A stretch of 64,000 bases of DNA, taken from NCBI RefSeq assembly GCF_020181355.1, contig NZ_CP084004.1:992001-1056000 (forward strand), read 5' to 3'. Shown here piece by piece: positions 24,601-50,894 of this stretch. A model generated the notes under the pieces. It saw only the letters and a list, made by a program, of their open reading frames with translations, made no database searches and was not told the DNA's origin. Numbering within the stretch: the first letter of the stretch is position 1; every line of letters starts with the position of its first letter. The position numbers and the translations under genes were made by a program. Origin of the DNA: Collinsella aerofaciens. GTDB lineage: Bacteria; Actinomycetota; Coriobacteriia; Coriobacteriales; Coriobacteriaceae.

Positions 24601-25323
24601 CTAGCCGATGGGCTCGGTGTATTTGGCACGGTCGGTGCGTTGGATGCGCTTGGAGATGTGCAGCGGGCGGCCGTCGGTGTCGTAGACGTAGTCGGTGATT
24701 AGGATCAGCGCCTGCCCGCGCTCAACGTTGAGCAAAAACGCCTCGTTTTGCGAGGCATAGCACACCTCAAAGGTCTTATGTCCCTGTGCTGGCGCTCGAT
24801 GGAATTCTTGGCGCAGCGTCGCGTAGAGCGAACCGTTGATATCGCGATCGATGAGCGTCTCGAAGCTTGGCGGCAGGTAGGTGGTCTCCAGGCACAGCGG
24901 CACGTCGTCCAGGTAGCGCAGGCGGACAAGTTTGACGAGCTTGCTGCCCACGGCGGCGTCAAAGAACTTAGCCATGCTGCCGGCCGCCTTGGCAAAGCCC
25001 GAGTCCACGGTGCGCGTGGTGGGCTTCATGCCCTGACCTTCGACCTGCTTGGTATAGCTCGAAAACACCAGGTTGTTCTCGTGGAGCGCCGGCGTGTCGG
25101 CCACAAAGGCACCACGCCCGCGCTCGGTGCGAACCAGACCCTCATCAACGAGCACCTTAAGGGCATGGCGCACGGTGCTGCGCGACAGCCCCGATTCGTC
25201 CATGAGTTCCATCTCGGACGGCAGCTTGTCTCCGCGTGCGTAGATGCCGGCGGCGATGCGGTCGCGCAGCATGCCCGCCAAGTGCTCGTATTGGGCCAGT
25301 TTCTTTTTAGACGAAGCGTTCAT
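24601..25323 (-). CDS. GntR-family regulator with UTRA domain (locus 1)
   Basis: 240 aa, read leftward. The N-terminal GntR winged helix spans about 10-75 (RIAAGIYARGDKLPSEMEL, then SRSTVRHALKVLVDEGLV and GRGAFV). A UTRA ligand domain of the HutC/FarR type follows (about 95-235). It is transcribed divergently from the SIS deglycase gene at 25529, across a 205-bp region with two 18-base direct repeats that are good operator candidates. It is probably the local repressor, induced by a sugar phosphate or sugar-amine phosphate. Confidence 0.9.
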   Translation of the reverse strand: MNASSKKKLAQYEHLAGMLRDRIAAGIYARGDKLPSEMELMDESGLSRSTVRHALKVLVDEGLVRTERGRGAFVADTPALHENNLVFSSYTKQVEGQGMKPTTRTVDSGFAKAAGSMAKFFDAAVGSKLVKLVRLRYLDDVPLCLETTYLPPSFETLIDRDINGSLYATLRQEFHRAPAQGHKTFEVCYASQNEAFLLNVERGQALILITDYVYDTDGRPLHISKRIQRTDRAKYTEPIG

Positions 25324-25333
25324 GCGATCAACC

Positions 25334-25351
25334 TGTATCTAACTTGTATGC
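25334..25351. promoter_or_regulatory. Candidate GntR operator, repeat 1
   Basis: TGTATCTAACTTGTATGC matches 25473-25490 at 17 of 18 positions. It lies ten bases upstream of the regulator start codon. An inverted half (GCATACAACT) is at 25444-25453. Confidence 0.55.
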
Positions 25352-25472
25352 GAATCTAATCAAGCATGTATTCAATACAACAACAAAACCGCTGGTAGCC
25401 AATTATCAAAAATCGCATCAGCAAAATTTCTAAGATAAATATAGCATACAACTAGTCGACATAACCAAAACA

Positions 25473-25490
25473 TGTATGTAACTTGTATGC
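25473..25490. promoter_or_regulatory. Candidate GntR operator, repeat 2
   Basis: TGTATGTAACTTGTATGC, 39 bases upstream of the SIS gene start, is nearly identical to the copy beside the divergent regulator gene. Confidence 0.55.
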
Positions 25491-25528
25491 CATCGAGAGC
25501 ATCAAACGAGAAGAAAGGCTGATGCACG

Positions 25529-26521
25529 ATGACTACTCAGGAACAGGTTAAGGATGTCGTCTCCCAGGTTTTGGCTGACAAGGCAGACAAGGGCGGCATC
25601 AAGCGCGTCGTGTGGATTGGCGCTGGCGGATCCAACGGCGGCAACTATCCTGCCCAGTACTTTATGGAGCACGAGGCCACGCAGGTCGTGAGCTCCAGCT
25701 ACACCAGCAACGAGTTCGTGCACGCCACCCCGGCCTACGTCAACGAGAACACCCTGGCCGTCGTCGTGTCCATGCGCGGCACCAAGGAGACCATCGTTGC
25801 CGCCCAGGTCGCCAAGGACCACGGCGCCAGCACCATCGCCATCTATGTTGACGAGTCCGGCCTCACCGAGGTCTGCGACTACAAGATCCAGTACGACAGC
25901 CTGGCCGTCGATGAGTCCTGTATGGGCCGCACCAACTCCGCCGTCGTGACCATGATCGCCATGGAGCTTACGCAGCAGACCGAGGGCTATGCCGAGTACG
26001 AGACCGCTATGGCCGCCTTCGACTTGGTTGACCCCATCTATCGCAAGGCCGTCGAGTACACCCGTCCGCTCGCTGCCAAGTGGGCCGAGCAGAACGCCGA
26101 CAAGCCCTGCATCAACGTCATGGCCCAGGGCCCGCTCTTTGGTGCCGCCTACGTCTTTAGCATCTGCAACGTGCAGGAGATGCTGCAGATCGACTCCTGC
26201 ACCATCAACACCTGCGACTTCTTCCACGGCCCCTTCGAGATTCTGGACAAGCGCACCTCGCTGTTCCAGCTCATCAGTGTCGGCCGCAGCCGCTGCAACG
26301 ACGAGCGCGGCATCCGCTTCGTCAACCAGTACGGTGGCGAGCGCGTCTATCAGCTCGATGCCAAGGAGCTTGGCCTCAACGACATCAAGGACAGCGTGAG
26401 CGAATACTTCAACCACCTGATCTTTGCGCCGATCCTCAACAACGTGTATATGCGCGCGCTTTCTGCCGTCACCCACAAGGACTACATGACGCGCCGCTAC
26501 ATGTGGAAGCTGGACTACTAG
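25529..26521 (+). CDS. SIS-domain sugar-amine deglycase, FrlB-like (locus 1)
   Basis: 330 aa. Two SIS domains: first with WIGAGGSNGG and VVSMRGTKETIV, second with NVMAQGPLFGAAY. The pair of residues that are catalytic in FraB/FrlB (Glu and His 16 apart) is present as Glu217 and His233 (VQEM...FFHGPFE), and the C-terminus ends in the family's RRYMWKLDY. FrlB-type enzymes split fructoselysine 6-phosphate into glucose 6-phosphate and lysine. Codon use is strongly biased, suggesting high expression. It is a one-gene unit opposite its GntR regulator; no transporter is adjacent, so uptake must come from elsewhere. Confidence 0.85.
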   Translation: MTTQEQVKDVVSQVLADKADKGGIKRVVWIGAGGSNGGNYPAQYFMEHEATQVVSSSYTSNEFVHATPAYVNENTLAVVVSMRGTKETIVAAQVAKDHGASTIAIYVDESGLTEVCDYKIQYDSLAVDESCMGRTNSAVVTMIAMELTQQTEGYAEYETAMAAFDLVDPIYRKAVEYTRPLAAKWAEQNADKPCINVMAQGPLFGAAYVFSICNVQEMLQIDSCTINTCDFFHGPFEILDKRTSLFQLISVGRSRCNDERGIRFVNQYGGERVYQLDAKELGLNDIKDSVSEYFNHLIFAPILNNVYMRALSAVTHKDYMTRRYMWKLDY

Positions 26522-26557
26522 GGGATAGAGCGGCCTAACAGCTCGATGTCCTCATAA

Positions 26558-26622: not shown

Positions 26623-26696
26623 CGCCCAGTAATCCGCTGGGGACGGAGGAAAACGGATCACTTTTCCGCTCGCCGATTTGTGTCTTGAAAAATGTA

Positions 26697-26714
26697 TATA
26701 ACGACTATAACGTA
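26697..26714. promoter_or_regulatory. Candidate operator/promoter of the EamA transporter
   Basis: Two tandem nine-base units, TATAACGAC and TATAACGTA, lie 39 bases upstream of the TTG start. The TATAACG core matches the sites at 27984-28002, 34115-34124 and 48104-48112. A TTGAAA at 26685 could be the -35. Confidence 0.5.
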
Positions 26715-26752
26715 GTGTGAAACATATTGGAAACAATACCGAGGAGGCTGCG

Positions 26753-27835
26753 TTGAAGAAAAGCAATCTGGGCTATGTGCTGGTGCTGATCGCCGCGCTT
26801 ATGTGGGGCAGCATCGGAATCTTTGTAAAAGGCATCTCGGCCCTGGGTGTTTCGTCTCAGAGCATGGCGGCCTTTCGCCTGTTGTCAGGTGCCGTCTTAA
26901 TGGCTCCGGTCTTGGCGTTCATGGGTTGCCAGGGAGGCGATCGTGAGGGAAAAGCATCGGGTCCCCTGGCACTGTTCAAGGCAAGTCCTAAAGAGCTTGT
27001 TCCCTGTGCGCTTCTTGGCATTATCGGCCTCGCTACCGCTAACACGCTTTATTACGAGTGTATGGGCGAGGTGGGCATGTCCACGGCCTCGGTGCTGCTC
27101 TACACCTCGCCGGTGTTTGGCGTCATGCTCGGCCGCGTGCTTTATCGCGAGGATGTGACTCCCAACAAGCTCGTTGCCATCGCTTTTAATATCGGTGGCT
27201 GTGTGCTTGCAGTGACCAATGGCGACCTTTCCGGTTTCCATTTTTCGGTTTGGGGCGTCACGTCGGGCGTGATTGCGGGCTTTTGTGGCGCGTCGCTCGC
27301 GGTGTTTAGCCGGATAGCAACCAAGACGGTCCACCCGCTGGCTGTCACGTTTTGGGGCCTTGTTTTTGGCGGTGCGGTTATGGCGGCTATCGCGGCTCCG
27401 TGGCCAGATGTCGCCGCGGCAATGTCGCCTCAGCTGCTGCTGCTGTTCCTTGGTTTTGGACTCATCCCCACAGCCGTGGCCTATGTCTTATATATGCAGG
27501 GTCTGTCCATGGGGCTCGAGACATCGAAAGTTCCCGTCGTAATGTCTTTCGAGACAGTCGTCACCGTACTGGTGGGCATTGGCATCTACGCCGAGCCCGC
27601 CGGCGCGATCAAGGTCCTGGGCATCGTGCTGGTGCTCGCGTCCATCCTGATCATGAACACCGACTTCTCCAAGCTGCGCAACAGTGTGTTTGTCGGTCAT
27701 GTTGTTGAGAGCATGACCTTTAAGCCCAACGCGTGGTGGACGGAGAAATCGCAGGACATGGATCTGTTTAAGGAGCGCACCGGCATCGCGCTGGAGCCCA
27801 CCGTGCAGGAAAGCCCCTGGTACTTTGTGCGATAG
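26753..27835 (+). CDS. EamA/DMT-family transporter (locus 2)
   Basis: 360 aa from TTG 26753, chosen because GAGGAGG lies at 26741-26747; the GTG at 26717 has no ribosome site and overlaps the likely -10 region. Ten hydrophobic segments form two EamA repeats (LIAALMWGSIGIFVKG in the first; VTFWGLVFGG to FGLIPTAVAYVLY in the second), followed by an unusual 65-residue hydrophilic C-terminal tail. DMT proteins move amino acids, amines or nucleotide sugars. It precedes the PTS operon and shares its putative operator, so it may export the amine released by deglycation; this is inference. Confidence 0.85.
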   Translation: MKKSNLGYVLVLIAALMWGSIGIFVKGISALGVSSQSMAAFRLLSGAVLMAPVLAFMGCQGGDREGKASGPLALFKASPKELVPCALLGIIGLATANTLYYECMGEVGMSTASVLLYTSPVFGVMLGRVLYREDVTPNKLVAIAFNIGGCVLAVTNGDLSGFHFSVWGVTSGVIAGFCGASLAVFSRIATKTVHPLAVTFWGLVFGGAVMAAIAAPWPDVAAAMSPQLLLLFLGFGLIPTAVAYVLYMQGLSMGLETSKVPVVMSFETVVTVLVGIGIYAEPAGAIKVLGIVLVLASILIMNTDFSKLRNSVFVGHVVESMTFKPNAWWTEKSQDMDLFKERTGIALEPTVQESPWYFVR

Positions 27836-28018: not shown

Positions 28019-28942
28019 ATGAATCAGATCATTCTCGCATCTCATGGCGGCCTGGCCGCAGGCGCCAAAGACACGCTCGAGATGGTTCTCGGCGACGTGT
28101 CGAACGTCCACGTCGTGTCGCTTGCTCGTGACGACAAGGAGCCCATCACCAATAAGGTGGACGCTCTGATCGCCACGTTCAACGCGGACGACACCGTCTA
28201 TGTGCTGACCGATATGCTCGGCAGCTCGGTCAACAACAGCATGGTCGAGCTTTCCAAGAACGGCACGAAGTTCACGGTTGTCAGCGGTTTCAACATTCCG
28301 CTGGCACTGACGCTCGCTATGAGCCCCGTCCCCATCAAGGGCGCCGAGCTCGCGGCCCTCATCAACGAGGCCCGTACCGGCCTGACCAACCCCAACGCAC
28401 CGGTCGAGGCCGCTGCGGCTCCCGCCAAGAAGGCCAAGGCGTCCCGTCACAGCTCCGGTCCCGCCAAGATCGTCCTCGCACGTCTTGACTACCGTCTGCT
28501 GCACGGCCAGGTCGTCTTTACCTGGACCACCAAGGTTCAGGCCGAGCGCATCATCGTCGTCGACAACGCTGCCGCCAACGATGACATCAAGAAGGGCGCT
28601 CTTAAGCTGGCCAAGCCCCAGGGCGTGCGCCTGAACGTCTTCACCGTCGAGCGTGCCCTCGCCAAGATGGACAAGCTCAACACCCTCGGCGAGCGCGTCA
28701 TGTTTGTCTTTGGCAACACTGCCGAGATGCTGCAGTTCTGCCAGGGTTACAAGCTCGACGCCATCAACCTGGGCGCCACCGCCAACCACGACGGTGCCGA
28801 TCAGATTGGCGGCAAGGACAGCTCCGTCTTCTTCGACGCCACCCAGAAGGCCGACGTCAACCAGCTGCTCGACATGGGCATTAAGCTCTACGTCCAGCAG
28901 ACCCCTACGTATCAGAGCGTCGACATCGACGCCAAGCTGTAA
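28019..28942 (+). CDS. Mannose-family PTS EIIA-EIIB fusion (locus 2)
   Basis: 307 aa. EIIA-Man domain (1-about 125) with phospho-acceptor His9 in ILASHGGLA; an Ala/Pro/Lys linker (about 125-147); then an EIIB domain with His162 in RLDYRLLHGQV. It receives phosphate from HPr and passes it through IIC/IID to the incoming sugar. The ribosome site is AAAAGGAGGAGG. The operon continues with IIC (36-bp gap), IID and an SIS deglycase, the same gene set as the glucoselysine/fructoselysine (gfr-type) PTS loci of enterobacteria. Codon bias is strong. Confidence 0.93.
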   Translation: MNQIILASHGGLAAGAKDTLEMVLGDVSNVHVVSLARDDKEPITNKVDALIATFNADDTVYVLTDMLGSSVNNSMVELSKNGTKFTVVSGFNIPLALTLAMSPVPIKGAELAALINEARTGLTNPNAPVEAAAAPAKKAKASRHSSGPAKIVLARLDYRLLHGQVVFTWTTKVQAERIIVVDNAAANDDIKKGALKLAKPQGVRLNVFTVERALAKMDKLNTLGERVMFVFGNTAEMLQFCQGYKLDAINLGATANHDGADQIGGKDSSVFFDATQKADVNQLLDMGIKLYVQQTPTYQSVDIDAKL

Positions 28943-28978: not shown

Positions 28979-29773
28979 ATGAATACGTTCATCAGTGCGG
29001 TGCTCGTCGGCCTCGTCGGCGTGTTCTGCATGTGGGACTCCCGCCTGCTCGGTCGTCTTAACTTCGAGCAGCCCCTCGTTGGCGCTACGCTCGTCGGTCT
29101 GCTGCTGGGCGATGTGCCCACCGGTCTTGCCGTCGGTGCCGCCGTCGAGCTCGTGTCCATGGGCCTGGTGCAGGTCGGCGCCGCCGTTCCGCCCGATATG
29201 GTCCTGGGCGGCATCGTGGCCGCTGCCTTTGCGTGCCTGACCGATGCTTCCGCCGAGACCGCCATGACGATCGCCATCCCGGTCGCCGTCCTGGGTCAGC
29301 TCCTCGGCATCGTGTTCCGTTCCATCATCGCCGTCCTCACCCATGTGGCAGATAACGCGATTGATAACGGAAAGTTCAAGACCGCCTACCGTATGCACAT
29401 CTGCGCCGGCTCCGGTTTGTACGCCATCATGTACTTCCTGCCGATCTTCCTCGCCGTCTTTGTTGGCACCGACCTGGTTCAGGCCATCGTCAACATGGTT
29501 CCCGAGTGGCTGTCCACTGGTCTTAACGTTTCGACCAAGATCATGACCGCCTACGGCTTGGCCCTGCTGCTCACCATGATGATCAAGAAGGGTATGACTC
29601 CGTTCCTGTTCATCGGTTTCCTGCTCGCCGCTTACCTCAACCTGTCCGTCATCGCGGTCGCTCTGATCGGTGTGTGCCTGGCTGTCGTCTTCATGGGCTT
29701 CAAGTTCAACGGTTCCCATGCAGCCGCCGGTGTCGATTCCGACTACGATCCGCTCGAAGACGACGAAGACTAA
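28979..29773 (+). CDS. Mannose-family PTS IIC component (locus 2)
   Basis: 264 aa, AAGGAGAAGG upstream. Hydrophobic throughout, with the IIC-Man hallmarks GRLNFEQPLVGATLVGLLLGD (in two parts) and VQVGAAVPPDMVLGGIVA; the C-terminal tail is acidic (DPLEDDED). With IID it forms the membrane channel. It serves as the intact comparison for the interrupted IIC at 49273: the C-terminal segment FLFIGFLLAAYLNL has a counterpart beyond the stop codon there. Confidence 0.94.
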   Translation: MNTFISAVLVGLVGVFCMWDSRLLGRLNFEQPLVGATLVGLLLGDVPTGLAVGAAVELVSMGLVQVGAAVPPDMVLGGIVAAAFACLTDASAETAMTIAIPVAVLGQLLGIVFRSIIAVLTHVADNAIDNGKFKTAYRMHICAGSGLYAIMYFLPIFLAVFVGTDLVQAIVNMVPEWLSTGLNVSTKIMTAYGLALLLTMMIKKGMTPFLFIGFLLAAYLNLSVIAVALIGVCLAVVFMGFKFNGSHAAAGVDSDYDPLEDDED

Positions 29774-29786: not shown

Positions 29787-30620
29787 ATGGCAACCGCAAC
29801 CAAGGACGTGTCCCTGAACAAGAAGGTCAGCCAGTTCTTCTGGCGCTCCTGGGCCATCCAGGCCTCTTGGAACTACGAGCGTCAGATGAACATGGGCTTC
29901 CTCTACGGTATGGTTCCCACGCTCGATCGCCTCTATCCGGACGAGTCCGACCCCAAGCAGCTTGCTGCTAAGAAAGAGGCTTACCACCGTCACATGGCGT
30001 TCTACAACTGCACCCCGCAGACGAGCGCTTTCATCCTGGGCCTCGCCGCCTCCATGGAGGAGGAGTACGCCAAGGATCCCGAGAACTTCAACCCCGATTC
30101 GATTAACGCGGTCAAGACCTCCCTTATGGGCCCGCTTTCCGGCATCGGTGACTCCTTCTTCCAGGGCACCATCCGCGTTATCGCCTTTGGCTTGGGCGTT
30201 CAGCTGGCTCAGCAGGGCTCCATCATGGGCCCGATCCTGGCCCTTCTCATCTCCATCGTCCCCTCCGTGCTGATTACTTGGTTCGCAGCCAAGATGGGCT
30301 ATCAGGGCGGCCACGAGTACCTGAGCAAGCTTCAGGGCGGCGACCTCATGGAGAAGCTCATGTATGTCTGCGGCATCGTGGGTCTTATGTCCGTGGGCGG
30401 CATGATCGCTACGCTGATCGGCGCCACCACCCCGCTGCAGTTCGCTGAGGGCACCGTCGTGATCCAGGACATCCTGGACGGCATGATGCCCCAGATGATC
30501 TCCCTCGGCCTCACTGGCCTTATGTACTGGCTCATCAAGAAGAACGTCAACACCGGTTGGCTTCTCGTGATCGCCATTGTGGGCGGCATCGCCCTCTCCG
30601 CGGTCGGCATCCTGGCTTAG
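29787..30620 (+). CDS. Mannose-family PTS IID component (locus 2)
   Basis: 277 aa from ATG 29787, 13 bp after IIC, with AAGGAGG. The IID-Man family signatures are WRSWAIQASWNYERQMNMGFLY (in two parts), MGPLSGIGDSFFQGTIRV and the C-terminal membrane helix. It partners IIC in transport. A hairpin lies 35 bases after its stop, between it and the SIS gene, which may set a lower or differently processed level for the downstream gene. Confidence 0.94.
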   Translation: MATATKDVSLNKKVSQFFWRSWAIQASWNYERQMNMGFLYGMVPTLDRLYPDESDPKQLAAKKEAYHRHMAFYNCTPQTSAFILGLAASMEEEYAKDPENFNPDSINAVKTSLMGPLSGIGDSFFQGTIRVIAFGLGVQLAQQGSIMGPILALLISIVPSVLITWFAAKMGYQGGHEYLSKLQGGDLMEKLMYVCGIVGLMSVGGMIATLIGATTPLQFAEGTVVIQDILDGMMPQMISLGLTGLMYWLIKKNVNTGWLLVIAIVGGIALSAVGILA

Positions 30621-30819: not shown

Positions 30820-31803
30820 ATGTACGAGATCGACCTTAACCTCCCTAAGCAGATCGTCGCTGACGTCCTGTCCAACCACGAGATCCACAGCGTCGCTTTC
30901 GTCGGCTGCGGCGCCTCCATGTCCGACCTTTACCCCGCCAAGTACTTCCTGGCCAACAACACGGACAAGCTGAACGTTCAGATCTTCACTGCTAACGAGT
31001 TCAACTACGACACGCCTTCCTGGGTCAACGAGCACACCTTCGTGATCACCTGCTCCCTCGGTGGCTCCACGCCCGAGACCGTCGAGGCCAACAAGACCGC
31101 CAAGAAGCACAACTGCCCGGTCGTCTCCCTCACCAACAAGGCTGGCTCCGCTCTGACCGTCGACGCTGACTACGTCATCGTTCACGGCTTCCACGCCAAC
31201 TTCGCTGCCAAGTGCGAGAAGCCCGGCTACGCCATCGCTCTTGCTGTCGAGATCCTTCAGCAGACCGAGGGCTATGACCACTACGAGGACATGATCACCG
31301 GCCTCACCAACGTCTTTGAGCTCTGCGAGAACGCTGCTCAGTCCTGCAAGAAGCTCGCCAAGAAGTTCGCCGAGGACTTCAAGGACGACAAGATGATCTA
31401 CTTCATGGCTTCCGGTGCCTCCGAGAAGATGGCTTATTCTCACGCCGCCTTCCTGTTCACCGAGATGCAGTGGATCGACGCCGCCGCCTACAACACCGGT
31501 GAGTACTTCCACGGCCCGTTCGAGGTTTCCACCGAGGGTAAGCCCTACGTCTTCTTCATGTCCGATGGCGCTACCCGTCCGATGGACGCCCGCGCCCTCA
31601 CCTTCCTTAAGCGCATGGGCGCCAAGGTCGCTCTGATCGACTCCAAGGACTACGGCCTGGCTGACGCCGTGCCCGCGAGCGTCGTCACCTACTTCAACCC
31701 GCTGCTGCACCTCGCCGTTATGCGCGAGTACGGCAACCAGATCGCCGAGGCCCGTCAGCACCCGCTGACCATGCGTCGCTACATGTGGAAGCTTTCCTAC
31801 TAA
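30820..31803 (+). CDS. SIS-domain sugar-amine deglycase, FrlB/GfrF-like (locus 2)
   Basis: 327 aa from ATG 30820 (GAAAGGA nine bases upstream; ATG 30811 is too close to that site). Two SIS domains (FVGCGASMSDL with CSLGGSTPETV; FMASGASEKMA). The catalytic pair of the FraB/FrlB family is Glu215 and His231 (FTEMQW...YFHGPFE), and the end is RRYMWKLSY. Being last in a mannose-PTS operon is the gfr-type arrangement, so the substrate is likely a phosphorylated glycated amine. Codon bias indicates high expression. A strong terminator follows. Confidence 0.88.
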   Translation: MYEIDLNLPKQIVADVLSNHEIHSVAFVGCGASMSDLYPAKYFLANNTDKLNVQIFTANEFNYDTPSWVNEHTFVITCSLGGSTPETVEANKTAKKHNCPVVSLTNKAGSALTVDADYVIVHGFHANFAAKCEKPGYAIALAVEILQQTEGYDHYEDMITGLTNVFELCENAAQSCKKLAKKFAEDFKDDKMIYFMASGASEKMAYSHAAFLFTEMQWIDAAAYNTGEYFHGPFEVSTEGKPYVFFMSDGATRPMDARALTFLKRMGAKVALIDSKDYGLADAVPASVVTYFNPLLHLAVMREYGNQIAEARQHPLTMRRYMWKLSY

Positions 31804-31836: not shown

Positions 31837-31869
31837 AGGGGATGGGGTTTGCGCCCTGTCCCCTTTTTT
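31837..31869 (+). terminator. Intrinsic terminator of the PTS operon
   Basis: AGGGGATGGGG and CCCTGTCCCCT form a stem followed by TTTTTT. Confidence 0.85.
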
Positions 31870-31905
31870 GCTCTGGGGAGGGCGTGTCTGCCGCGTCATA
31901 AAACC

Positions 31906-31949
31906 CCAGATAAAACCTACCAAAATAAACCTGTCCCTTTTTGGCAGGT
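31906..31949. repeat. Dispersed repeat R1, copy c
   Basis: CCCCAGATAAAACCTACC, then AAACCTGTCCCTTTTTGGCAGG. Its edge abuts the ribosome site of the HAD gene, so the element forms that gene's 5' leader. Confidence 0.85.
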
Positions 31950-31963
31950 GGGAGGAGATGCGT

Positions 31964-32593
31964 ATGATCAAGGCGGTGCTGTTTGATATGGACGGCGTGC
32001 TGGTCGATACCGAGTGGTTCTACAACCGTCGTCGCGTGGCGTTTATGGAAGAGAAGGGGTTCCACTTTGACGAGATTCCCGATCTTTCGGGGTCTAACGA
32101 GCCTGCCATTTGGGAGGCGCTGGTGCCCGACGATATTGAGCTGCGTGAGCGTCTGCGCGTGGAGTACAAGCAGGTCTACAGCCCGGACCATCCCGTTCCG
32201 TATACCGAGCTGCTCAACGAGCAGACGGGGCCGGTGATGCGTGAGCTGCACGAGCGCGGCGTGAAGTGCGCCATCGCGAGCTCGTCCTATCGCGAGCTCA
32301 TTGACGAGCTGGTGGAAATTGCCGGTATCGCCGACGTGCTGGACTACACCATCAGCGGCCACGAGTGCAGTGCGTTTAAGCCCGACCCCGAGATCTACCT
32401 GCGTGCCATGGAGGCGCTGGGGGTGGAGCCTGCCGAGTGCCTGGTTATCGAGGACTCGCCTTTGGGCATCGAGGCCGGCAAGCGCTCCGGCGCCCGAGTC
32501 CTGGCGCTGCGTCCGCACGAGGGCGTCAACCTGGACCAGTCCGCCGCCGACGTCGTCATCGACAACCTGACCGACATTTTGGCCGCTCTGTAG
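31964..32593 (+). CDS. HAD-family phosphatase/phosphomutase (beta-PGM-like)
   Basis: 209 aa from ATG 31964; ATG 31958 is only one base beyond the GGGAGGAG at 31949-31956. HAD motifs: I LFDMDGVLVDTE (nucleophile Asp and acid Asp), II ASSSYRE, III Lys in FKPDPEIYL, IV VIEDSPLGIEAG. The cap is of the small helical C1 type, as in beta-phosphoglucomutase and sugar phosphatases. It lies after the deglycase operon, separated by a terminator and an R1 repeat, so it has its own or read-through expression. It may process hexose phosphates from deglycation, but this is inference. Confidence 0.88.
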   Translation: MIKAVLFDMDGVLVDTEWFYNRRRVAFMEEKGFHFDEIPDLSGSNEPAIWEALVPDDIELRERLRVEYKQVYSPDHPVPYTELLNEQTGPVMRELHERGVKCAIASSSYRELIDELVEIAGIADVLDYTISGHECSAFKPDPEIYLRAMEALGVEPAECLVIEDSPLGIEAGKRSGARVLALRPHEGVNLDQSAADVVIDNLTDILAAL

Positions 32594-32939: not shown

Positions 32940-33947
32940 GTGGCGAACGCCATCGATCAGCTCACGGACCGCGTGCTCGTGCTCGGCCGCCTTACCATCG
33001 TCCGCCGCGCTATTACCGCTGTGGCGGTCACCATTTCTGCCGTTCTCCAGACATTTCTGATCCAGGCGTTCATTCGGCCCGCCGACTTGCTTCCGAGCGG
33101 CCTTACCGGCGTCGCGGTCCTGCTCGATCGCGTTACCTCGCTCGGCGGCGTTCATATCGACATCTCGCTCGGCATGCTCGCGCTCAACATCCCCGTGGCG
33201 CTCCTATGCTGGAGCGGCATTAGCAAGCGCTTCGTCATCTTCTCGATGATGCAGGTTGCGCTCTCGTCGCTGTTCCTCAACATCTTTCACTTCGCACCGT
33301 TTTTGGGCGACAAGATCATGCTTATCATTTTTGGCGGCGTGGTCTCGGGCCTGGGCGCTGCCATTGCGCTTAAGTCCGGCGCATCCACCGGCGGTACCGA
33401 CTTTATCGCGCTGTGGGTTTCCAACCACACGGGCAAGACCATTTGGGGCGTCATCTTTGGTTTTAACTGCTTTATCCTGGCGATCTTTGGTTTTATGTTT
33501 GGCTGGGACAACGCAGCGTATTCCATCGTGTTCCAGTTTATTTCGACCAAGACCATCGACAGCTTCTACCGCCGCTATGACCGCGTGACGCTGCAGATCA
33601 CGACGCGCAAGGCCGACGAGGTCATGACCGCCTATATCGACCATTTTCAGCACGGCATTAGCTGCGCCGAGGTCATCGGCGGATACAGCCGCGAAAAGAT
33701 GTACCTGCTGCACGCCGTTGTCTCGACCTACGAGAGTCAGGACATTATCAAGCTGGTGTGCGACATTGATCCCGGCGCCGTGATCAATGTGTTCCACACG
33801 CTCAACTTTGTGGGCGGCTGGTGGGGCGGTCATGTCGACGAGCCCATGCCCACGGCCGTACCCGATCCCGACAAGCCCGCGCGCATGGCCAGTAGGCAGG
33901 CGCGCCTCATCGAGCAGGACAGCCTGCAGCAGGACGACGGCAAGTAG
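32940..33947 (+). CDS. YitT-family membrane protein (DUF161/DUF2179)
   Basis: 335 aa from GTG 32940 (GAAGGGA upstream). Five or six transmembrane segments with the family motifs FIRPADLLPSGLTGVAVLL and KSGASTGGTDFIAL, then a cytoplasmic DUF2179 domain (about 225-300, with VTLQITTRKADEV and FVGGWWGG near the end of the domain) and a hydrophilic tail. The family is widespread in Firmicutes and Actinobacteria; the function is unsettled. A terminator follows at once. Confidence 0.88.
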   Translation: MANAIDQLTDRVLVLGRLTIVRRAITAVAVTISAVLQTFLIQAFIRPADLLPSGLTGVAVLLDRVTSLGGVHIDISLGMLALNIPVALLCWSGISKRFVIFSMMQVALSSLFLNIFHFAPFLGDKIMLIIFGGVVSGLGAAIALKSGASTGGTDFIALWVSNHTGKTIWGVIFGFNCFILAIFGFMFGWDNAAYSIVFQFISTKTIDSFYRRYDRVTLQITTRKADEVMTAYIDHFQHGISCAEVIGGYSREKMYLLHAVVSTYESQDIIKLVCDIDPGAVINVFHTLNFVGGWWGGHVDEPMPTAVPDPDKPARMASRQARLIEQDSLQQDDGK

Positions 33948-34075: not shown

Positions 34076-34114
34076 AGGGTGTATCGTTTTATCAATATGA
34101 GGTAACATGAAACT

Positions 34115-34130
34115 AGACGTTATATACGTA
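34115..34130. promoter_or_regulatory. Candidate operator of the GntR gene
   Basis: AGACGTTATATACGTA contains a near-palindrome (ACGT-TATAT-ACGT) and the decamer AGACGTTATA also found at 27981-27990 before the PTS operon. Confidence 0.55.
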
Positions 34131-34166: not shown

Positions 34167-34886
34167 ATGCCCGCGCCCAAAAATGCACCGCTTTACCAGC
34201 AGATTTACGATGAAATCAAGGATGCGATCGAGAAAGGTGTTTATGCACCCAAGGAGCGTATTCCGTCCGAGCTTGAGCTAGCCGAGCAGTACGAGGTGAG
34301 CCGAATTACGGTACGCCGCGCCGTCGAGGAGCTGTGCTCTGATGGCTACCTGGTTAAGCAGCAGGGCCGTGGCACCTTTGTTTCCACGCCGCACATCAAT
34401 CGCCAGTTTCACGCCTCGACGCTGCAGACGTTTACCGCGCTGTGTGCCGATAACGGCATGAAGGCCGGTGCGCATGTGATCGATCGTCAGATCGTGCCGG
34501 CGCGCCAAAACGAGATGGAGTTCTTTGGTCTGCAGAAGGATGCGCTGCTACTGCATATCAAGCGCGTGCGTACGGCCGACGGCGAGCCCATCTTTGAGGA
34601 GAACATCTTTGTGCCGTTTGACGCCTACCGTGAGCTGTTGACGGCCGATCTTGAGGACAAGTCGATTTTTGCCGAGGTCGAGCGTGTTGGCGGAACCCCG
34701 ATTGTCTCGGTTGGCTACCGCACGGTCGAGGCCGTTCGAGCTAACGCCGAGCAGGCGGCCGAGCTGGGCATTGCTCCGCACGATCCGCTGCTCAACCTGC
34801 GTGCCGGCTTTATCGGTCCCAATGGCGAGCCGGTCCTGATGGGTAAGCAGTACTACGTGGGATCGCGTTACGTCATGGTCATGTAG
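34167..34886 (+). CDS. GntR-family regulator with UTRA domain (locus 2)
   Basis: 239 aa. GntR winged helix at about 5-75 (PLYQQIYDEIKDAIEKG, then PSELELAEQYEVSRITVRRA and GRGTFVS), UTRA domain at about 90-235. The promoter contains the same AGACGTTATA decamer as the PTS-deglycase operon 6 kb upstream, so I infer that it controls that operon and itself. It is most similar in layout to the regulator at 37242. Confidence 0.9.
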   Translation: MPAPKNAPLYQQIYDEIKDAIEKGVYAPKERIPSELELAEQYEVSRITVRRAVEELCSDGYLVKQQGRGTFVSTPHINRQFHASTLQTFTALCADNGMKAGAHVIDRQIVPARQNEMEFFGLQKDALLLHIKRVRTADGEPIFEENIFVPFDAYRELLTADLEDKSIFAEVERVGGTPIVSVGYRTVEAVRANAEQAAELGIAPHDPLLNLRAGFIGPNGEPVLMGKQYYVGSRYVMVM

Positions 34887-38072: not shown

Positions 38073-38088
38073 TAGGACAACATAGAAC
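38072..38088. promoter_or_regulatory. Candidate GntR operator, downstream copy (locus 3)
   Basis: ATAGGACAACATAGAAC overlaps the end of the -10 element, a position where binding would block initiation. Confidence 0.6.
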
Positions 38089-38144
38089 GACCGCAGGTAC
38101 GAGCTGTCGTCGTTCAAAGCCGCCACACAAGGAGGAACATCACC

Positions 38145-45941: not shown

Positions 45942-46157
45942 ACAGGTAGAAGATAAAAATCAATCGGCTTATCGGATGCATATACCGCCATCAGATTGAA
46001 GTTGTATGCGGAAATGGATGGACTCTACACCGCTTACGCAAAATAACCCCTCGTTTGCTAAAACATTATAGGAAATGGCGTGGAGTGCTAAAAAGTTCTA
46101 ATACAATATAAGCCATTTATCTATAAGCTGCTGATTTCTTGTAAAGGTATGGTTGAT

Positions 46158-46862
46158 ATGGTTGAAGCAAATAGCGTTATCCCCCTGTACAAACAGATTG
46201 TTCATGCGCTTTCTGATTCGATCGCCAACGGCACGTACCGCCCGGGAGATAAGCTCCCGACCGAGGCGGAGCTTATCGAGCAATTTGGCGTGAGCCGAAT
46301 AACGGTTCGCTCCGCAATTAAAGAAATGGAAGATGCTGGGCTTGTTGAGAGGGCCCGTGGCAAGGGCACGTTTGTTTCGTCGGACACGCAGATGTATGCC
46401 GCGGACGACCGTGAGAGCTTTACCCATTCGTGCCAGCTTGCGGGCAAACAGGCGTCTACCAGGGTTCTCGAAATGGGCTGGGACTTCCCAAGCCTGCGAG
46501 ACGCGAAGTTCCTGGGCGTAGACGATACCCAAAAGGTATTGCGTAGTCGTCGTCTACGCCTTGTGGATGGCAAGCCCACGATGCTGGAAACCAATAGCTA
46601 TTCCGCTGCGCTTTCTTTTTTGGAGCATGAGTCCCTCGATGATTCGCTGATGGCGGTACTCGATCGCCAGGGGATCAAGATGGGCCCCAACACGCGTACG
46701 CTCGAGGTCTGCTATGCGAGCGAGCTCGAGGCGGCATACCTTAACGTGGAGCTGGACTCTTCGCTGCTTCTGTTTGTCGATAGGCGCTATGCCCCAAGCG
46801 GCGAGCCGCTCTTCATCTCCCGTCAGGTGTACTGCACCGAGCGACTGAAGTTCTACTTGTAA
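46158..46862 (+). CDS. GntR-family regulator with UTRA domain (locus 4)
   Basis: 234 aa from ATG 46158, ten bases after AAAGG; ATG 46149 is too close to that site. GntR winged helix at about 5-75 (PTEAELIEQFGVSRITVRSA, GKGTFVS), then a UTRA domain. It is the first gene of the fourth deglycase locus: GntR, EIIA, EIIB, SIS, IIC, IID, all in one direction. It probably represses the genes behind it; 135 bp with AT-rich dyads separate it from EIIA. Confidence 0.9.
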   Translation: MVEANSVIPLYKQIVHALSDSIANGTYRPGDKLPTEAELIEQFGVSRITVRSAIKEMEDAGLVERARGKGTFVSSDTQMYAADDRESFTHSCQLAGKQASTRVLEMGWDFPSLRDAKFLGVDDTQKVLRSRRLRLVDGKPTMLETNSYSAALSFLEHESLDDSLMAVLDRQGIKMGPNTRTLEVCYASELEAAYLNVELDSSLLLFVDRRYAPSGEPLFISRQVYCTERLKFYL

Positions 46863-46997: not shown

Positions 46998-47417
46998 ATG
47001 AATAAGATATTGCTAGCGAGTCATGGTTATCTCGCCCAAGGCATGAAAAGCTCTCTGGAGATTCTGATGGGCACCAACGACCGAATCGAGTGCCTGTGCG
47101 CCTATGTCGATGACGATTCAAGGGACGTCGCGGCGTTGATTGATGCATGGATGGAGACGAGGGACCCTGCCGACTCTTGGTTTGTCGTGACTGACATCTT
47201 TGGCGGCTCTGTAAACAACGAATTCATTCAGAGGCAGACTGCCGAATCGTTTACGTTGATCGCCGGAATGAACTTGCCGCTGCTGGTGGAAATGGTTACA
47301 CAGCTGGACTCCCTGGATGCGGGCAAGGCCAAAGCCGCGGTCGAGGGATCGCGTTCGTTTATTCAGCTTTGCGAGGCGGCGGACATGCTTGCCGGCGCCG
47401 AGGAAGAAGATTTCTAG
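46998..47417 (+). CDS. Mannose-family PTS EIIA component (locus 4)
   Basis: 139 aa. Stand-alone EIIA-Man with phospho-acceptor His9 in ILLASHGYLA and the FVVTDIFGGSVNN motif typical of the fold. In the other PTS of this window EIIA is fused to EIIB; here they are separate, with 71 bp between them, so the two systems are not simple duplicates. GGAG lies upstream of ATG 46998. Confidence 0.92.
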   Translation: MNKILLASHGYLAQGMKSSLEILMGTNDRIECLCAYVDDDSRDVAALIDAWMETRDPADSWFVVTDIFGGSVNNEFIQRQTAESFTLIAGMNLPLLVEMVTQLDSLDAGKAKAAVEGSRSFIQLCEAADMLAGAEEEDF

Positions 47418-47488: not shown

Positions 47489-47962
47489 ATGATTAAGCTT
47501 ACGAGAGTTGATTACCGACTGATTCACGGCCAAGTTGCCATGTCCTGGACTCACGCTTTGGATGTAGATTGCATCCTGCTTGCCAGCGATGCTGTGGCAA
47601 AAGACGACATGAGGAAGGCGGCCTTGAGACTCGCCCGCCCCAACGGCGTTAAACTCGTCATCAAGGATGTTGACGCTGCTATCGAGGCGCTCAACAGCGG
47701 CGTTACCGACAAGTATTCGCTGTTTATCATCGCTGAGACGATTGAAGATGTCTATCGTCTCGCTAAGGGTTGCAAAGACATCAAAGAGATCAATCTGGGT
47801 GGAACCCGAAAGACCCCCGAGACCACGCTTCATCCGACCCCTGCAATCTTCGCGACCGAGAAAGATGCCGAGCATATCCAAGAGCTCCTGGGCGATGGCG
47901 TGGCTATCGAAATCCGTCAGGTTCCCAATGACGCTAAGGTGTTTGCCAAGGACGTTTTTTAG
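47489..47962 (+). CDS. Mannose-family PTS EIIB component (locus 4)
   Basis: 157 aa from ATG 47489 (GCGGAG ten bases upstream; ATG 47480 would place the site only one base away). Phospho-acceptor His13 in RVDYRLIHGQV; the family motif EINLGGTRKT follows. It transfers phosphate from EIIA to the incoming sugar. A terminator hairpin comes soon after, so EIIA-EIIB and the following SIS gene may be regulated separately. Confidence 0.92.
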   Translation: MIKLTRVDYRLIHGQVAMSWTHALDVDCILLASDAVAKDDMRKAALRLARPNGVKLVIKDVDAAIEALNSGVTDKYSLFIIAETIEDVYRLAKGCKDIKEINLGGTRKTPETTLHPTPAIFATEKDAEHIQELLGDGVAIEIRQVPNDAKVFAKDVF

Positions 47963-48013
47963 CCGAAAACATGCTGGTGTTCGGCATTTATTGAACCGAT
48001 GCTCTATGTCTAT

Positions 48014-48045: not shown

Positions 48046-48103
48046 TTAAAGAAAAATCAAAAAAATCTGAAATAGTTCTTGCATAGTTAGTTATATAAAG
48101 TAT

Positions 48104-48112
48104 TATAACGTC
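48104..48112. promoter_or_regulatory. Candidate GntR operator before the locus 4 deglycase
   Basis: TATAACGTC is the reverse complement of GACGTTATA, the core shared by the sites at 27981 and 34115. It lies 45 bases upstream of the SIS start. Confidence 0.45.
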
Positions 48113-48156
48113 ATGGGATGAATGAAGGGTTCATCCAAGTGAGTTAGGAGTAAGGG

Positions 48157-49191
48157 ATGTTCAATTTCGATGAGCCTCGTTACGAGAAGGTTGTGAGCGA
48201 TGCCCTCGCTCTCCGTCCTCAGATTGAGGCTGCCGTGGACGAGGTCTGCGAGCAGGGTTATTCCAACATCTTCTTCATCGGCTGCGGCGGCACCTGGGCC
48301 CACACGCTCCCGATGAAGTATTGGGTCGAGACCACCACGGCCGACGTCGACGTCCACTGCGAGATCGCCGCTGAGTTCCTCGCGTGCCCGCCTAAGACCT
48401 TCAACAAGGATTCGGTCTGCGTCTTCTCTACCCGTACCGGCACCACCCCCGAGATCATTGAGGCTGCCAAGTTCTGCCAGGAGCAGGGCGCCCGCACGCT
48501 GATGTATGTCTCCAACGACAACACTCCGGCCACCGAGTACGCCGATTACAAGTTCTTCAGCTTCGCCGAGGACGACGTTCTGTGCGAGGCCATCTACACC
48601 TACCAGATCACGCTGGTCGCTCGCTTCCTCAAGAACGCCGGCGCCTTCCCCAAGTACGACACCTTCATGGAGGAGTTTGGCAAGATCGCCCCGTTCCTCA
48701 TCAAGGCCAAGGACGCCCAGGACGAGCGTTGCGCCGCCATGGCCGAGGACTTCAAGGACACCGACTACCACATGGTAATCGGCTCCGGCATGCTCTGGGG
48801 TGAGGCCTACGACTACGCCATGTGCATCCTCGAGGAGATGCAGTGGATCAAGACCAAGTCCATCCACGCCGCCGAGTTCTTCCACGGCACCATCGAGCTG
48901 TGCGAGGAGGGCACGAGCCTCATCATGCTCTACGGCGAGGACGACACCCGTAAGCTCATGGACCGCGTGGACAACTTCACTCACATGCTCGCCGACGAGA
49001 AGGGCGTCAACGTCCGCGTGAACAAGTTTGACACCGCCGAGGTCGAGCTGCCGTTCAGCGACCCCGAGTTCCGCAAGATCGTCTCCCCGATGGTCACCTA
49101 TACCATCACCGAGCGTCTGAGCTGCCATCTCGAGCACGTCCGTAACCACCCGCTCACCACGCGTCGTTACTATCACCAGATGAACTACTAA
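48157..49191 (+). CDS. SIS-domain sugar-amine deglycase, FrlB/GfrE-like (locus 4)
   Basis: 344 aa, the longest of the four. SIS domains: FIGCGGTWAHTL with STRTGTTPEII, and VIGSGMLWGEAYDYA. The catalytic pair is Glu227 and His243 (LEEMQW...FFHGTIE); the usual HGP is HGT here. The C-terminus is RRYYHQMNY. Codon use is strongly biased. The gene is placed between EIIB and IIC, as expected for an enzyme that processes the imported phosphosugar. Its substrate is probably different from that of locus 2. Confidence 0.87.
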   Translation: MFNFDEPRYEKVVSDALALRPQIEAAVDEVCEQGYSNIFFIGCGGTWAHTLPMKYWVETTTADVDVHCEIAAEFLACPPKTFNKDSVCVFSTRTGTTPEIIEAAKFCQEQGARTLMYVSNDNTPATEYADYKFFSFAEDDVLCEAIYTYQITLVARFLKNAGAFPKYDTFMEEFGKIAPFLIKAKDAQDERCAAMAEDFKDTDYHMVIGSGMLWGEAYDYAMCILEEMQWIKTKSIHAAEFFHGTIELCEEGTSLIMLYGEDDTRKLMDRVDNFTHMLADEKGVNVRVNKFDTAEVELPFSDPEFRKIVSPMVTYTITERLSCHLEHVRNHPLTTRRYYHQMNY

Positions 49192-49272
49192 TCCTCTCAA
49201 ATTGCTGCGATTGTCTGCAGGCGAGCTGCGCAGAACGCCTCGCTTGCAGACCTATTTCTGGGGTTGATCGAA

Positions 49273-50046
49273 ATGGTTGTCCAGTATCTTCTAGTTGCAC
49301 TGGTCGCATTTATTGCGTCCATGGACGAGCAATTATTTGGCATTACGATGCTTGGTCGTCCGCTGTTTACGAGCCTGTTTGTCGGCTTGATCCTTGGCGA
49401 TGTCCAGCAGGGCGTTATCGTCGGCGCTGCTTTGGAGTCCATGTTCATGGGCGCCATCATGGTCGGCGCGGCGGTTCCTCCAGAGGTCTATGCTTCCGGT
49501 GTGCTTGGCTGCGCGTTTGCCGTCATTACGGGTACGGGCACGGCAACTGCCGTCGCGCTCGCCCTTCCCGTCTCCGTCTTCCTTCAGGTGTGGCGCAACT
49601 TCTGCTACGCCGTTCCGGGTGCCTTTGCCTGCAAGAAGATTGAGACCGCTCTGGCAAATCGCGATCTTGCCAAGGCGAATCTGTACCATCTGACCATCGT
49701 GCCGCTGTCGATTGGCATTCCGTCTGCACTGCTGGTGTTTGGCTCGCTGTTCTTTGGTGCCGACCTCATCAACAATGCGCTCAATGCGATTCCGCAGTTT
49801 GTGATGGACGGCCTCAACGTTGCATCCGGCGTCATGGTCTGCATCGGCTTCGCACTTCTTATCAGGACCATGGGCGATAACAAGCTTCTTCCCTAGCTGT
49901 TCCTGGGATTCATTATGGTCATCTACCTCAAGATGGACGTTGTCGGCGTCGCCGCAGCTGCCATTTGCGTCGCGCTGCTCCTGGCCTTCCGCGAGGGTTC
50001 GTCCGGTCCGCAGGCGGTTGCTGCAGATGAAGAGGAGGACTTCTAA
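49273..50046 (+). pseudogene. Mannose-family PTS IIC with in-frame amber stop (locus 4)
   Basis: From ATG 49273 the frame runs 207 codons to TAG at 49894-49896, then continues open in the same frame for 49 codons to TAA at 50044-50046. The second part (LFLGFIMVIYLKMD, ending in an acidic EEEDF) matches the end of the intact IIC at 28979, so one substitution, probably from a Tyr or Phe codon, splits the gene. The N-terminal part has the family motif MVGAAVPPEVYASG. IID follows with a one-base overlap to the second stop. Either the permease is dead, read-through occurs, or this is a base-call error. Confidence 0.8.
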
Positions 50047-50894
50047 TGGCTACCCAGAACACCGACCTCAAAGAGGCCAAGAAGGATGCGATTATGACTC
50101 CCGATATGTATCGGAGCATGTTCCTTCGCCAGTTTACGAGCCAGTGCTCGCAGTCGTACGACAAGATGATGGCAATGGGCTTCATGTACACCATTCAGAA
50201 GCCCCTGCGAAAGATCTATCCTAACGACGACGATTACTATGCGGCGCTCGATCGCCATACAGAGTTCTTTAACATCACGCCTCATGTGCTTCCGTTTGTA
50301 GCCGGCCTAACGGTTTCGATGGAAGAGCAGGCGGCTGCCGATAAGAACTTTGACACGTCCTCGATCAACGCCATGAAGGTTGGTCTCATGGGGCCGCTTT
50401 CCGGCATCGGCGATTCGTTCTACTGGGGTACGTTCCGCGTGGTCGCCGCCGGCATTGGTATCGGTATCGCTTCGACGGGCAACCCGCTCGGCCCCATCGT
50501 GTATGCGCTCATCTACTCGGTGATTAACTTTGCAACGCGTATCGTCGCCGCCCATCTGGGATACGACTTGGGAACCAAGTTCCTGCAGCAGTCCGAAGAG
50601 AACAACCTTATGTCTCGCATGACGCATGCAGCCGGTGTCCTCGGAATGACCGTTATCGGCGCCATGATTGCGGCGCAGGTCTCGCTGTCCACGGCTTTGA
50701 CCTTTGACGTGGGTGGTTCGGAGATTGTCCTGCAGGATCTGTTCGATTCGATCTTCCCCGGTCTGCTGCCCTTGCTGGCAACGTTCGCTTGCGTTGCCCT
50801 GTACAAAAAGGGCGTCAAGACCATTTGGATTATTATTGGTATCTTCGCGATCTGCATCATCGGAACGGGTTTGGGAGTGTTCGCAGCGGCGTAA
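50046..50894 (+). CDS. Mannose-family PTS IID component (locus 4)
   Basis: 282 aa; ATG 50046 overlaps the last base of the full-length IIC frame, with GAGGAGG upstream. IID signatures: QCSQSYDKMMAMGFMY, MGPLSGIGDSFYWGTFRV, and a hydrophobic C-terminal helix. The frame is intact, indicating that the amber codon in IIC is recent or tolerated. A strong terminator closes the operon. Confidence 0.92.
   Translation: MATQNTDLKEAKKDAIMTPDMYRSMFLRQFTSQCSQSYDKMMAMGFMYTIQKPLRKIYPNDDDYYAALDRHTEFFNITPHVLPFVAGLTVSMEEQAAADKNFDTSSINAMKVGLMGPLSGIGDSFYWGTFRVVAAGIGIGIASTGNPLGPIVYALIYSVINFATRIVAAHLGYDLGTKFLQQSEENNLMSRMTHAAGVLGMTVIGAMIAAQVSLSTALTFDVGGSEIVLQDLFDSIFPGLLPLLATFACVALYKKGVKTIWIIIGIFAICIIGTGLGVFAAA

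What the first reader, a model, noticed from the sequence alone, without database searches (positions are those of the whole stretch)
24601..50894. Four separate FrlB-type deglycase loci within 26 kb
Seen: four SIS proteins (25529, 30820, 38145, 48157), four GntR/UTRA regulators (24601, 34167, 37242, 46158) and two mannose-family PTS operons in one stretch. Known: FrlB/FraB/GfrE-F enzymes split phosphorylated Amadori compounds, and Collinsella intestinalis has been reported to consume fructoselysine. Inference: this is an Amadori-product island in which the enzymes have different amine side-chain preferences and share two PTS importers. Loci 1 and 3 lack any transporter, which suggests they depend on the PTS of locus 2 or 4.
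Basis: partly seen in the sequence, partly recalled or inferred. Interest (0 to 1): 0.8.

Follow-up and report, generated by a model that had tools for sequence, protein, structure and literature searches.

The report
Gut bacterium's glycated-amine degradation gene cluster
A human gut bacterium carries a cluster of genes that look able to break down sugar-bound amino acids such as those in cooked food, but they appear to form three separate systems rather than one shared machine, and one importer gene is cut short.

Summary
The genes are there: four SIS proteins, four GntR/UTRA regulators and two mannose-family PTS sets, in a Collinsella aerofaciens-group genome. All four SIS proteins fall among FrlB/FraB/GfrF deglycases, apart from GlmS, AgaS and GfrE-type proteins. 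"Four separate loci sharing two PTS importers" does not hold.

(A) Loci 1 and 2 are one ancestral unit: SIS1-(EamA)-PTS-SIS2-HAD-GntR2.
(B) Locus 3 descends from a kinase-type frl operon: regulator 59% and deglycase 77% identical to those of a complete frl operon 485 kb away. All 24 other relatives found at 50% identity or more adjoin an FrlD-type kinase; the 21 island copies do not. Nineteen of these 21 genomes keep the kinase elsewhere, seven without a deglycase beside it; two lack it.
(C) Locus 4 is a patchy GfrF-type unit whose IIC gene ends 50 codons early here.

With a gfr operon elsewhere the genome has eight deglycase-type SIS genes. SIS1-3 group with enzymes for alpha-glycated amino acids, SIS4 with GfrF. 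Substrates are predictions; nothing here shows activity. Known chemistry in a new arrangement. A repair role for the orphan SIS3 is a live rival.

The parts
24601..25323 (-). GntR1, GntR/UTRA regulator divergent from SIS1
   Evidence: Pfam GntR+UTRA
25529..26521 (+). SIS1 deglycase-type enzyme; subclade without a characterised member among the rows used
   Evidence: Pfam SIS; trees (72,114); median dN/dS 0.010 over 16 relatives
26694..26709 (+). putative GntR2 operator before EamA
   Evidence: exact match; the 15-mer lies upstream of SIS1 in 6 of 20 related operons
26717..27835 (+). EamA/DMT transporter, possible amine exporter or importer
   Evidence: Pfam EamA; within 3 kb after SIS1 in 27 of 46 loci
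28019..28942 (+). PTS EIIAB (fused), operon 1+2
   Evidence: Pfam
28979..29773 (+). PTS EIIC, operon 1+2
   Evidence: Pfam
29787..30620 (+). PTS EIID, operon 1+2
   Evidence: Pfam on the longer ORF (4); start from codon-usage gene call
30820..31803 (+). SIS2 deglycase-type enzyme
   Evidence: Pfam SIS on the longer ORF from 30721 (4); trees (72,114)
31868..32593 (+). HAD sugar-phosphatase-like protein; start uncertain (31832 also possible)
   Evidence: Pfam; directly after SIS2 in 38 of the 40 loci that have SIS2 (84)
32940..33947 (+). YitT membrane protein, probably a neighbour only
   Evidence: Pfam; placed elsewhere or not found in many relatives
34112..34127 (-). putative GntR2 operator before gntR2
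   Evidence: 3 mismatches
34167..34886 (+). GntR2 regulator
   Evidence: Pfam
37242..38000 (+). GntR3, 59% identical to the regulator of the distant frl operon
   Evidence: Pfam; identity
38012..38026 (+). putative operator, copy 1
   Evidence: 1 mismatch to a looser pattern
38074..38089 (+). putative operator, copy 2, resembling a site before the distant frl permease gene
   Evidence: exact match to a pattern made from the two sites; suggestive only
38145..39113 (+). SIS3 deglycase-type enzyme, paralogue of the FrlB of the distant frl operon
   Evidence: Pfam; 77% (19); dN/dS 0.023-0.086 in 11 comparisons
46149..46862 (+). GntR4 regulator
   Evidence: Pfam
46998..47417 (+). PTS EIIA, locus 4
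   Evidence: Pfam
47489..47962 (+). PTS EIIB, locus 4
   Evidence: Pfam on the ORF from 47480 (6); start from gene call
48157..49191 (+). SIS4, GfrF-type deglycase
   Evidence: Pfam; trees (72,114)
49273..49896 (+). PTS EIIC, locus 4, cut short by an in-frame stop (207 against 257 aa)
   Evidence: alignment with two relatives (93-95)
50046..50894 (+). PTS EIID, locus 4
   Evidence: Pfam

Best explanation
The stretch holds three independent Amadori-compound systems that lie near one another. (A) Operon 1+2: a mannose-family PTS brings in glycated amines and phosphorylates the sugar; two different deglycases, SIS1 and SIS2, split the 6-phosphates into glucose-6-P and the free amine; a HAD phosphatase may clear excess phosphorylated intermediate; EamA may move the amine. 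GntR2 controls the EamA-PTS-SIS2 part, and in Collinsella SIS1 has come under a second regulator, GntR1. (B) SIS3+GntR3 is a detached pair from a kinase-type frl operon; it most likely acts on substrate phosphorylated by an FrlD-type kinase encoded about 485 kb away. (C) Locus 4 is a patchily distributed PTS-GfrF unit; in this genome its IIC is truncated, so SIS4 would probably need another importer, such as the gfr PTS at about 530 kb. Predicted specificity: SIS1-3 for alpha-glycated amino acids, SIS4 for epsilon-fructoselysine. Shown: gene content, phylogenetic placement, conserved linkage, purifying selection, truncation. Inferred: all activities, substrates, fluxes and regulation.
For: Pfam. 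Trees place all four within FrlB/FraB/GfrF proteins, apart from GlmS and from AgaS and GfrE-type; SIS1-3 and SIS4 sides are split at 100/99 (114). The FraB Glu214/His230 positions are kept in 40 of 40 aligned rows. Operon 1+2: PTS in 42, SIS2 in 40 and HAD in 38 of 46 loci, and a Pediococcus plasmid has a similar order. A 15-base word upstream of SIS1 in 6 of 20 related operons stands exactly before EamA in the window and with mismatches before gntR2 (2 matches, 0.12 expected, 0 of 100 shuffles with 2). SIS3: GntR3 59% to the frl regulator, SIS3 77% to its FrlB; 24 of 24 other relatives at 50% or more have an FrlD within 200 bp; FrlD1 (93% or more) kept in 19 of 21 SIS3 genomes and in 0 of 20 others, in 7 without a deglycase beside it, under purifying selection. 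In G036, which has no SIS3 match, the FrlD1 remnant carries an internal stop. Alpha preference of B. subtilis FrlB: passages of PMC12632257. Locus 4 IIC truncation.
Against: G021 and G033 keep SIS3 but have no kinase at the frl site or elsewhere at E<=1e-20. SIS2, the marker of the locus 2 PTS, is also in 21 of 21 SIS3 genomes. Two of the seven genomes with a lone FrlD1 (G004, G025) also hold a second kinase-deglycase pair, so SIS3 need not be its partner there. The genomes are close relatives and no genome tree was built, so co-occurrence counts are not independent. The shared SIS3/frl operator is weak: 10 of 200 shuffles score as high and seven other promoter pairs score equally or higher; with one mismatch the genome has 3 sites against 2 for the reversed control. 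I had seen the window word before writing the pattern, and SIS1's own upstream region in the window lacks it. The alpha/epsilon prediction rests on very few characterised enzymes, and joining E. coli FrlB to the GfrF side is not rejected (p-AU 0.066, 114). Glu/His are shared with GlmS and so not diagnostic. All four score 60-121 bits against a cut-off of 430 for the NCBIfam FrlB equivalog; annotated Salmonella FraB scores 107.
Confidence: 0.66

Rival explanations
1. SIS3 is a repair enzyme, not a nutrient enzyme: it splits fructosamine-6-phosphates that form inside the cell from glucose-6-phosphate and amino acids, and therefore needs neither transporter nor kinase.
For: It has no transporter beside it, stays under purifying selection and persists in G021 and G033 without a kinase. 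PMC12632257 (passage) proposes that glycation by intracellular glucose 6-phosphate during growth on glucose gives fructosamine 6-phosphates.
Against: Its GntR regulator is a paralogue of the frl operon regulator, and its other close relatives are kinase-linked (24 of 24), which points to a catabolic origin.
Confidence: 0.25
2. One reading: one island in which loci 1 and 3 draw phosphorylated substrate from the PTS of loci 2 and 4.
For: SIS1 is linked to the locus 2 PTS in 42 of 46 loci; SIS2 occurs in 21 of 21 SIS3 genomes.
Against: SIS4 has no match in 15 of 21 SIS3 genomes and the locus 4 IIC is truncated here; the SIS3 relatives are kinase-linked.
Confidence: 0.2
3. The SIS proteins act on amino-sugar phosphates (GlmS, NagB-II or AgaS type) rather than on Amadori products.
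For: They share the SIS fold and the Glu/His pair with GlmS; mannose-family PTS genes also serve amino sugars (recalled; the E. coli aga genes are an example); the best-named PDB match of SIS4, 2a3n, is called a putative glucosamine-fructose-6-phosphate aminotransferase.
Against: Trees separate them from GlmS and from AgaS and GfrE-type; homologues sit beside FrlD-type kinases. PDB names are mostly putative, so they decide little. NagB-II was not in the trees; the NagB-II model scores lower than the FrlB model for all four.
Confidence: 0.07

Closest known systems
Salmonella gfrABCDEF (fructoselysine/glucoselysine PTS; passages of PMC12675984; its text and a figure legend give the two deglycases opposite substrates)
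   Same: Mannose-family PTS plus two SIS deglycases in one operon
   Different: Operon 1+2 has two FraB-side enzymes and a HAD protein and no GfrE-type enzyme; locus 4 has one GfrF-type enzyme only
Salmonella fra locus and FraB (passages of PMC4072780 and PMC12755824)
   Same: SIS1 and SIS2 are 40-41% identical to FraB
   Different: The fra locus seen uses a kinase, a dicarboxylate-type transporter and an asparaginase; operon 1+2 uses a PTS
E. coli frlABCDR and B. subtilis frl (passages of PMC12632257)
   Same: SIS3 and GntR3 are paralogues of parts of a complete frl-type operon in the same genome
   Different: In the island the pair has no kinase, FrlC or permease beside it
Enterococcus faecium and Pediococcus plasmid PTS-SIS clusters
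   Same: Gene sets like operon 1+2 (Pediococcus SIS1 61%; E. faecium SIS2 53%) or locus 4 (E. faecium SIS4 42%)
   Different: LevR-type or sigma-54-interacting regulators beside the operon 1+2 type; among the plasmid loci opened only Pediococcus has SIS1 and SIS2 types together

Membership tests
FrlB/FraB/GfrF deglycases | SIS domain | tested here: met
   4 of 4 over the PF01380 cut-off
FrlB/FraB/GfrF deglycases | Catalytic Glu and His at FraB 214 and 230 (E214A inactive: passages of PMC12755824; His230 recalled) | tested here: met
   4 of 4, and 40 of 40 rows including GlmS and AgaS, so not diagnostic
FrlB/FraB/GfrF deglycases | Placement with known deglycases, apart from GlmS, AgaS and GfrE-type | tested here: met
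   Trees; MurR-type and NagB-II not included
NCBIfam NF008481 FrlB equivalog | Score of at least 430 bits | tested here: not met
   60, 76, 121 and 68 bits; annotated FraB also fails at 107
FrlB/FraB/GfrF deglycases | Deglycase activity on a 6-phospho-fructosamine | not testable with these tools
   No assay possible
gfr operon (locus 4) | GfrF-type deglycase with a mannose-family PTS | tested here: met
   which tree rows are GfrF rests on recall (2a3n/8glr) and on gene order
gfr operon (locus 4) | GfrE-type second deglycase in the operon | tested here: not met
   One SIS gene in locus 4; a GfrE-type is at C1:536567-537682
gfr operon (locus 4) | Complete IIABCD | tested here: not met
   IIC 207 against 257 aa
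frl operon (locus 3) | Kinase FrlD beside the deglycase | tested here: not met
   None in the island; FrlD1 about 485 kb away

The most novel reading that the evidence does not exclude
Collinsella aerofaciens runs a dispersed Amadori network: eight deglycase-type enzymes fed by PTS and kinase routes at three chromosomal sites. SIS3 serves, in trans, kinases encoded half a megabase away. The SIS1 subclade, with a phosphate loop one residue shorter and an altered catalytic helix (EMLQ for EMQW), handles a class of glycated amine that no characterised deglycase uses.
Probability: 0.3. Interest if true: 0.6.

Novelty: new variant of a known kind. Interest (0 to 1): 0.45.

Why it matters
Collinsella aerofaciens is a common gut bacterium and Amadori compounds are abundant in heated food (both from general knowledge). 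By matches to SIS3 the genome has more deglycase-type genes than all but one of 100 genomes of its class (7 matches, one had 8, 75 had none). The two-deglycase PTS operon, the SIS1 subclade and the alpha versus epsilon prediction give directly testable substrates. Strain differences (locus 4 present, absent or damaged; frl site full, kinase-only or empty) predict strain-level differences in use.

Tried and rejected
Shared operator between SIS3 and the distant frl operon: kept only as suggestive (10 of 200 shuffles as high; reversed control 2 against 3 sites; no copy of it beside the lone kinases). A search for perfect dyads upstream of SIS1 homologues gave none shared by more than 3 of 21 stretches. 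Inverted-repeat search of eight promoter stretches gave no common operator. Catalytic residues as proof of function: rejected, GlmS has them too. NCBIfam FrlB cut-off as a test of function: rejected, FraB fails it. First SIS3 dN/dS attempt was out of register and discarded, redone in 89; one search printed nothing because an alignment row shared the window's name, redone; one search printed genes for one of four loci only and was not repeated. Literature, open-licence PMC papers only: searches; no listing showed a paper on these Collinsella loci, but the listings were mostly seen as titles and abstract openings. Passages only were seen of PMC9749803 (names Collinsella spp. among potential fructoselysine degraders), PMC12675984, PMC12755824, PMC12632257, PMC4072780, PMC12136445, PMC12476023, PMC9609667 and PMC10134792; a term search of PMC12051030 found nothing. 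The Collinsella intestinalis report (Cell Host Microbe 2019) was not held; I know it from recall and part of one reference list.
Full report
Observation. Pfam scans confirm four SIS proteins, four GntR/UTRA regulators and two mannose-family PTS sets at the stated places, with the fourth regulator starting at 46149. The window is part of a 2.28 Mb genome. Its SIS1 is 99-100% identical to that of Collinsella aerofaciens strains and of unnamed Collinsella, so the source is most likely the C. aerofaciens group.

More of the same elsewhere in the genome. A search with SIS3 gave eight matches, one of them GlmS (GlmS by the tree). Besides the four in the window there is a complete frl-type operon at about C1:1.51 Mb (GntR, YfcC-type permease, amidohydrolase, FrlC-like, deglycase, two PfkB-type kinases and more, named from the sequences and by comparison, no Pfam scan) and a gfr-type operon at C1:526-539 kb (GntR, GfrE-type, GfrF-type, IIA, IIB, repeated IIC/IID, a DMT transporter, a second GfrF-type, likewise). 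With the GfrE-type protein this makes eight deglycase-type SIS genes. In 100 genomes drawn from the class, 25 had any match to SIS3 at E<=1e-14; this genome had seven and one had eight.

Phylogeny. In a tree of 40 rows the window proteins lie inside the deglycase group (branch 98/97), apart from GlmS, AgaS and the GfrE type. A second tree of 34 rows, with six long or duplicate rows dropped, splits the SIS1-3 side, with FraB and PDB 3eua, from the GfrF side with SIS4 at 100/99. SIS1, SIS2 and SIS3 lie in three different subclades. B. subtilis FrlB prefers alpha-glycated amino acids and E. coli FrlB epsilon-glycated lysine (passages of PMC12632257); the fructose-asparagine used by the fra pathway is an alpha compound (passages of PMC4072780). 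Hence the prediction of alpha specificity for SIS1-3 and epsilon for SIS4. It rests on few enzymes; which tree rows are B. subtilis FrlB and Salmonella GfrF is recalled; and E. coli FrlB cannot be placed firmly (p-AU 0.066 against joining the GfrF side). Glu214 and His230 of FraB are kept in 40 of 40 rows, GlmS and AgaS included. The SIS1 subclade has a phosphate loop one residue shorter, shared with L104, L113 and L117, and EMLQ for EMQW, not shared with them.

Loci 1 and 2 are one unit. Of 79 loci found with SIS1, 58 hold a relative labelled SIS1 at 45% identity or more and 46 of these have 6.5 kb downstream; 42 have PTS IIC+IID, 40 SIS2, 38 HAD after SIS2, 27 EamA, 3 a kinase and no PTS, and 1 none of these (12 loci without room and 21 below 45% were dropped). 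In several Olsenella, Parafannyhessea and Atopobium loci (L083, L088, L090, L098, L101, L102) SIS1 lies directly before IIAB with neither EamA nor a GntR1-type gene before it; other loci labelled Atopobiaceae have both. A Pediococcus plasmid has GntR, SIS1, LevR, PTS, SIS2 and a HAD gene. In the genus, 23 of 41 genomes have SIS1 (19 at 99-100%, 4 at 75-81%), each with a SIS2-type match on the same contig; two more SIS3 genomes, G031 and G032, have SIS2 without SIS1. A 15-base word found upstream of SIS1 in 6 of 20 related operons stands exactly before EamA in the window, and before gntR2 with three mismatches in the 16-base pattern; 0.12 matches are expected. I had already seen the window word, and the region upstream of SIS1 in the window lacks it (126). 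This fits a single ancestral regulon, with SIS1 later taken over by GntR1 in Collinsella. SIS1 has the lowest dN/dS of the ten genes compared (median 0.010 over 16 relatives; EamA could be compared in only one). Six SIS1-type loci have an FrlD-type kinase within 7 kb; one of these shows genes that look like a sugar-type ABC transporter, judged from the sequences only.

Locus 3. SIS3 is 77% identical to the deglycase of the frl operon and GntR3 59% to its regulator. Among 41 genomes of the genus, 21 have island SIS3 at 93-100%. All 24 other SIS3 relatives at 50% identity or more (20 in the genus, 4 in the class sample) have an FrlD-type kinase within 200 bp (recount in 126, largest gap 190). 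The kinase FrlD1 at 93% or more is in 19 of the 21 SIS3 genomes and in none of the 20 others: in 12 next to the frl deglycase, in 7 beside two HAD genes with no deglycase in the stretch fetched (in G010 the contig ends just after the kinase). Two of the seven, G004 and G025, also hold a second kinase-deglycase pair elsewhere. The other two SIS3 genomes have no kinase at that site: the HAD gene is followed by TatD in G033 and by the ThiF-like neighbour in G021. FrlD1 is under purifying selection (dN/dS 0.021-0.100 in 27 of 28 pairs among eight genomes, one pair not computable), as is SIS3 (0.023-0.086 in 11 comparisons). In G036, which has no SIS3 match, remnants of the permease and of FrlD1 with an internal stop remain at that site. 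This favours SIS3 as partner of the distant kinase. It is not proof: the genomes are related, and two keep SIS3 without the kinase. SIS2 is in 21 of 21, so PTS feeding is not excluded; intracellular repair is a further possibility. The shared operator is weak evidence.

Locus 4. SIS4 at 99-100% occurs in 6 of the 21 SIS3 genomes (twice in G002), and at 83-88% in G036 and G040, which have no SIS1, SIS2 or SIS3 match. The G+C content falls to 0.52 at 46-48 kb. In this genome IIC ends 50 codons early because of an in-frame stop; intact copies exist in G007 and G032. The four PTS parts of locus 4 are 28-45% identical to those of locus 2 and gfr.

Mechanism. By analogy with Gfr (passages of PMC12675984), the PTS imports and phosphorylates the glycated amine, the SIS enzyme releases a hexose-6-phosphate and the amine, and GntR regulators respond to substrate. 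The HAD protein as a safety valve against toxic 6-phospho intermediates (toxicity reported for fraB mutants, passages of PMC12755824) and EamA as amine transporter are my inferences. No structure was obtained.

Verdict. The enzymes are ordinary in kind. The arrangement (a two-deglycase PTS operon recurring in Coriobacteriia, a deglycase detached from its kinase operon, and a variable GfrF unit with a truncated IIC) is a new variant of known Amadori systems.

Noticed in passing
window 3604-4743 (-): A transposase-like ORF (IS30-like by eye, no family search run) with the same length, printed start and score as the copy beside the frl operon (L025 1229-2368).
   Followed up: no
L024 11002-15381: Tandem repeat in the gfr operon: two IID copies with the same 274-aa sequence, with a second IIC and a DMT transporter between them.
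   Followed up: no
L150 (G002) 9414-18153: Two SIS4 copies at 99% flank an extra regulator pair, PTS, SIS (36%) and kinase (31%), suggesting recombination around locus 4.
   Followed up: no
L149 14013-15200 and L166 307-1494: A transposase-like ORF (IS110-like by eye) lies between GntR2 and RecQ in G002, and upstream of EamA in G032, where no SIS1 match was found.
   Followed up: no
window 51338-52804: SLFN/AlbA_2 plus RecG-C-like ATPase ORF next to locus 4, also next to it in G007 and G032.
   Followed up: no
L140-L146: Lone FrlD1 kinases lie after HAD phosphatase genes, one of them 36-37% identical to the HAD of operon 1+2, so HAD genes recur beside both the kinase and PTS routes.
   Followed up: partly
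PMC12675984: The paper's text and a figure legend assign the glucoselysine and fructoselysine 6-phosphate activities to GfrE and GfrF in opposite ways.
   Followed up: no
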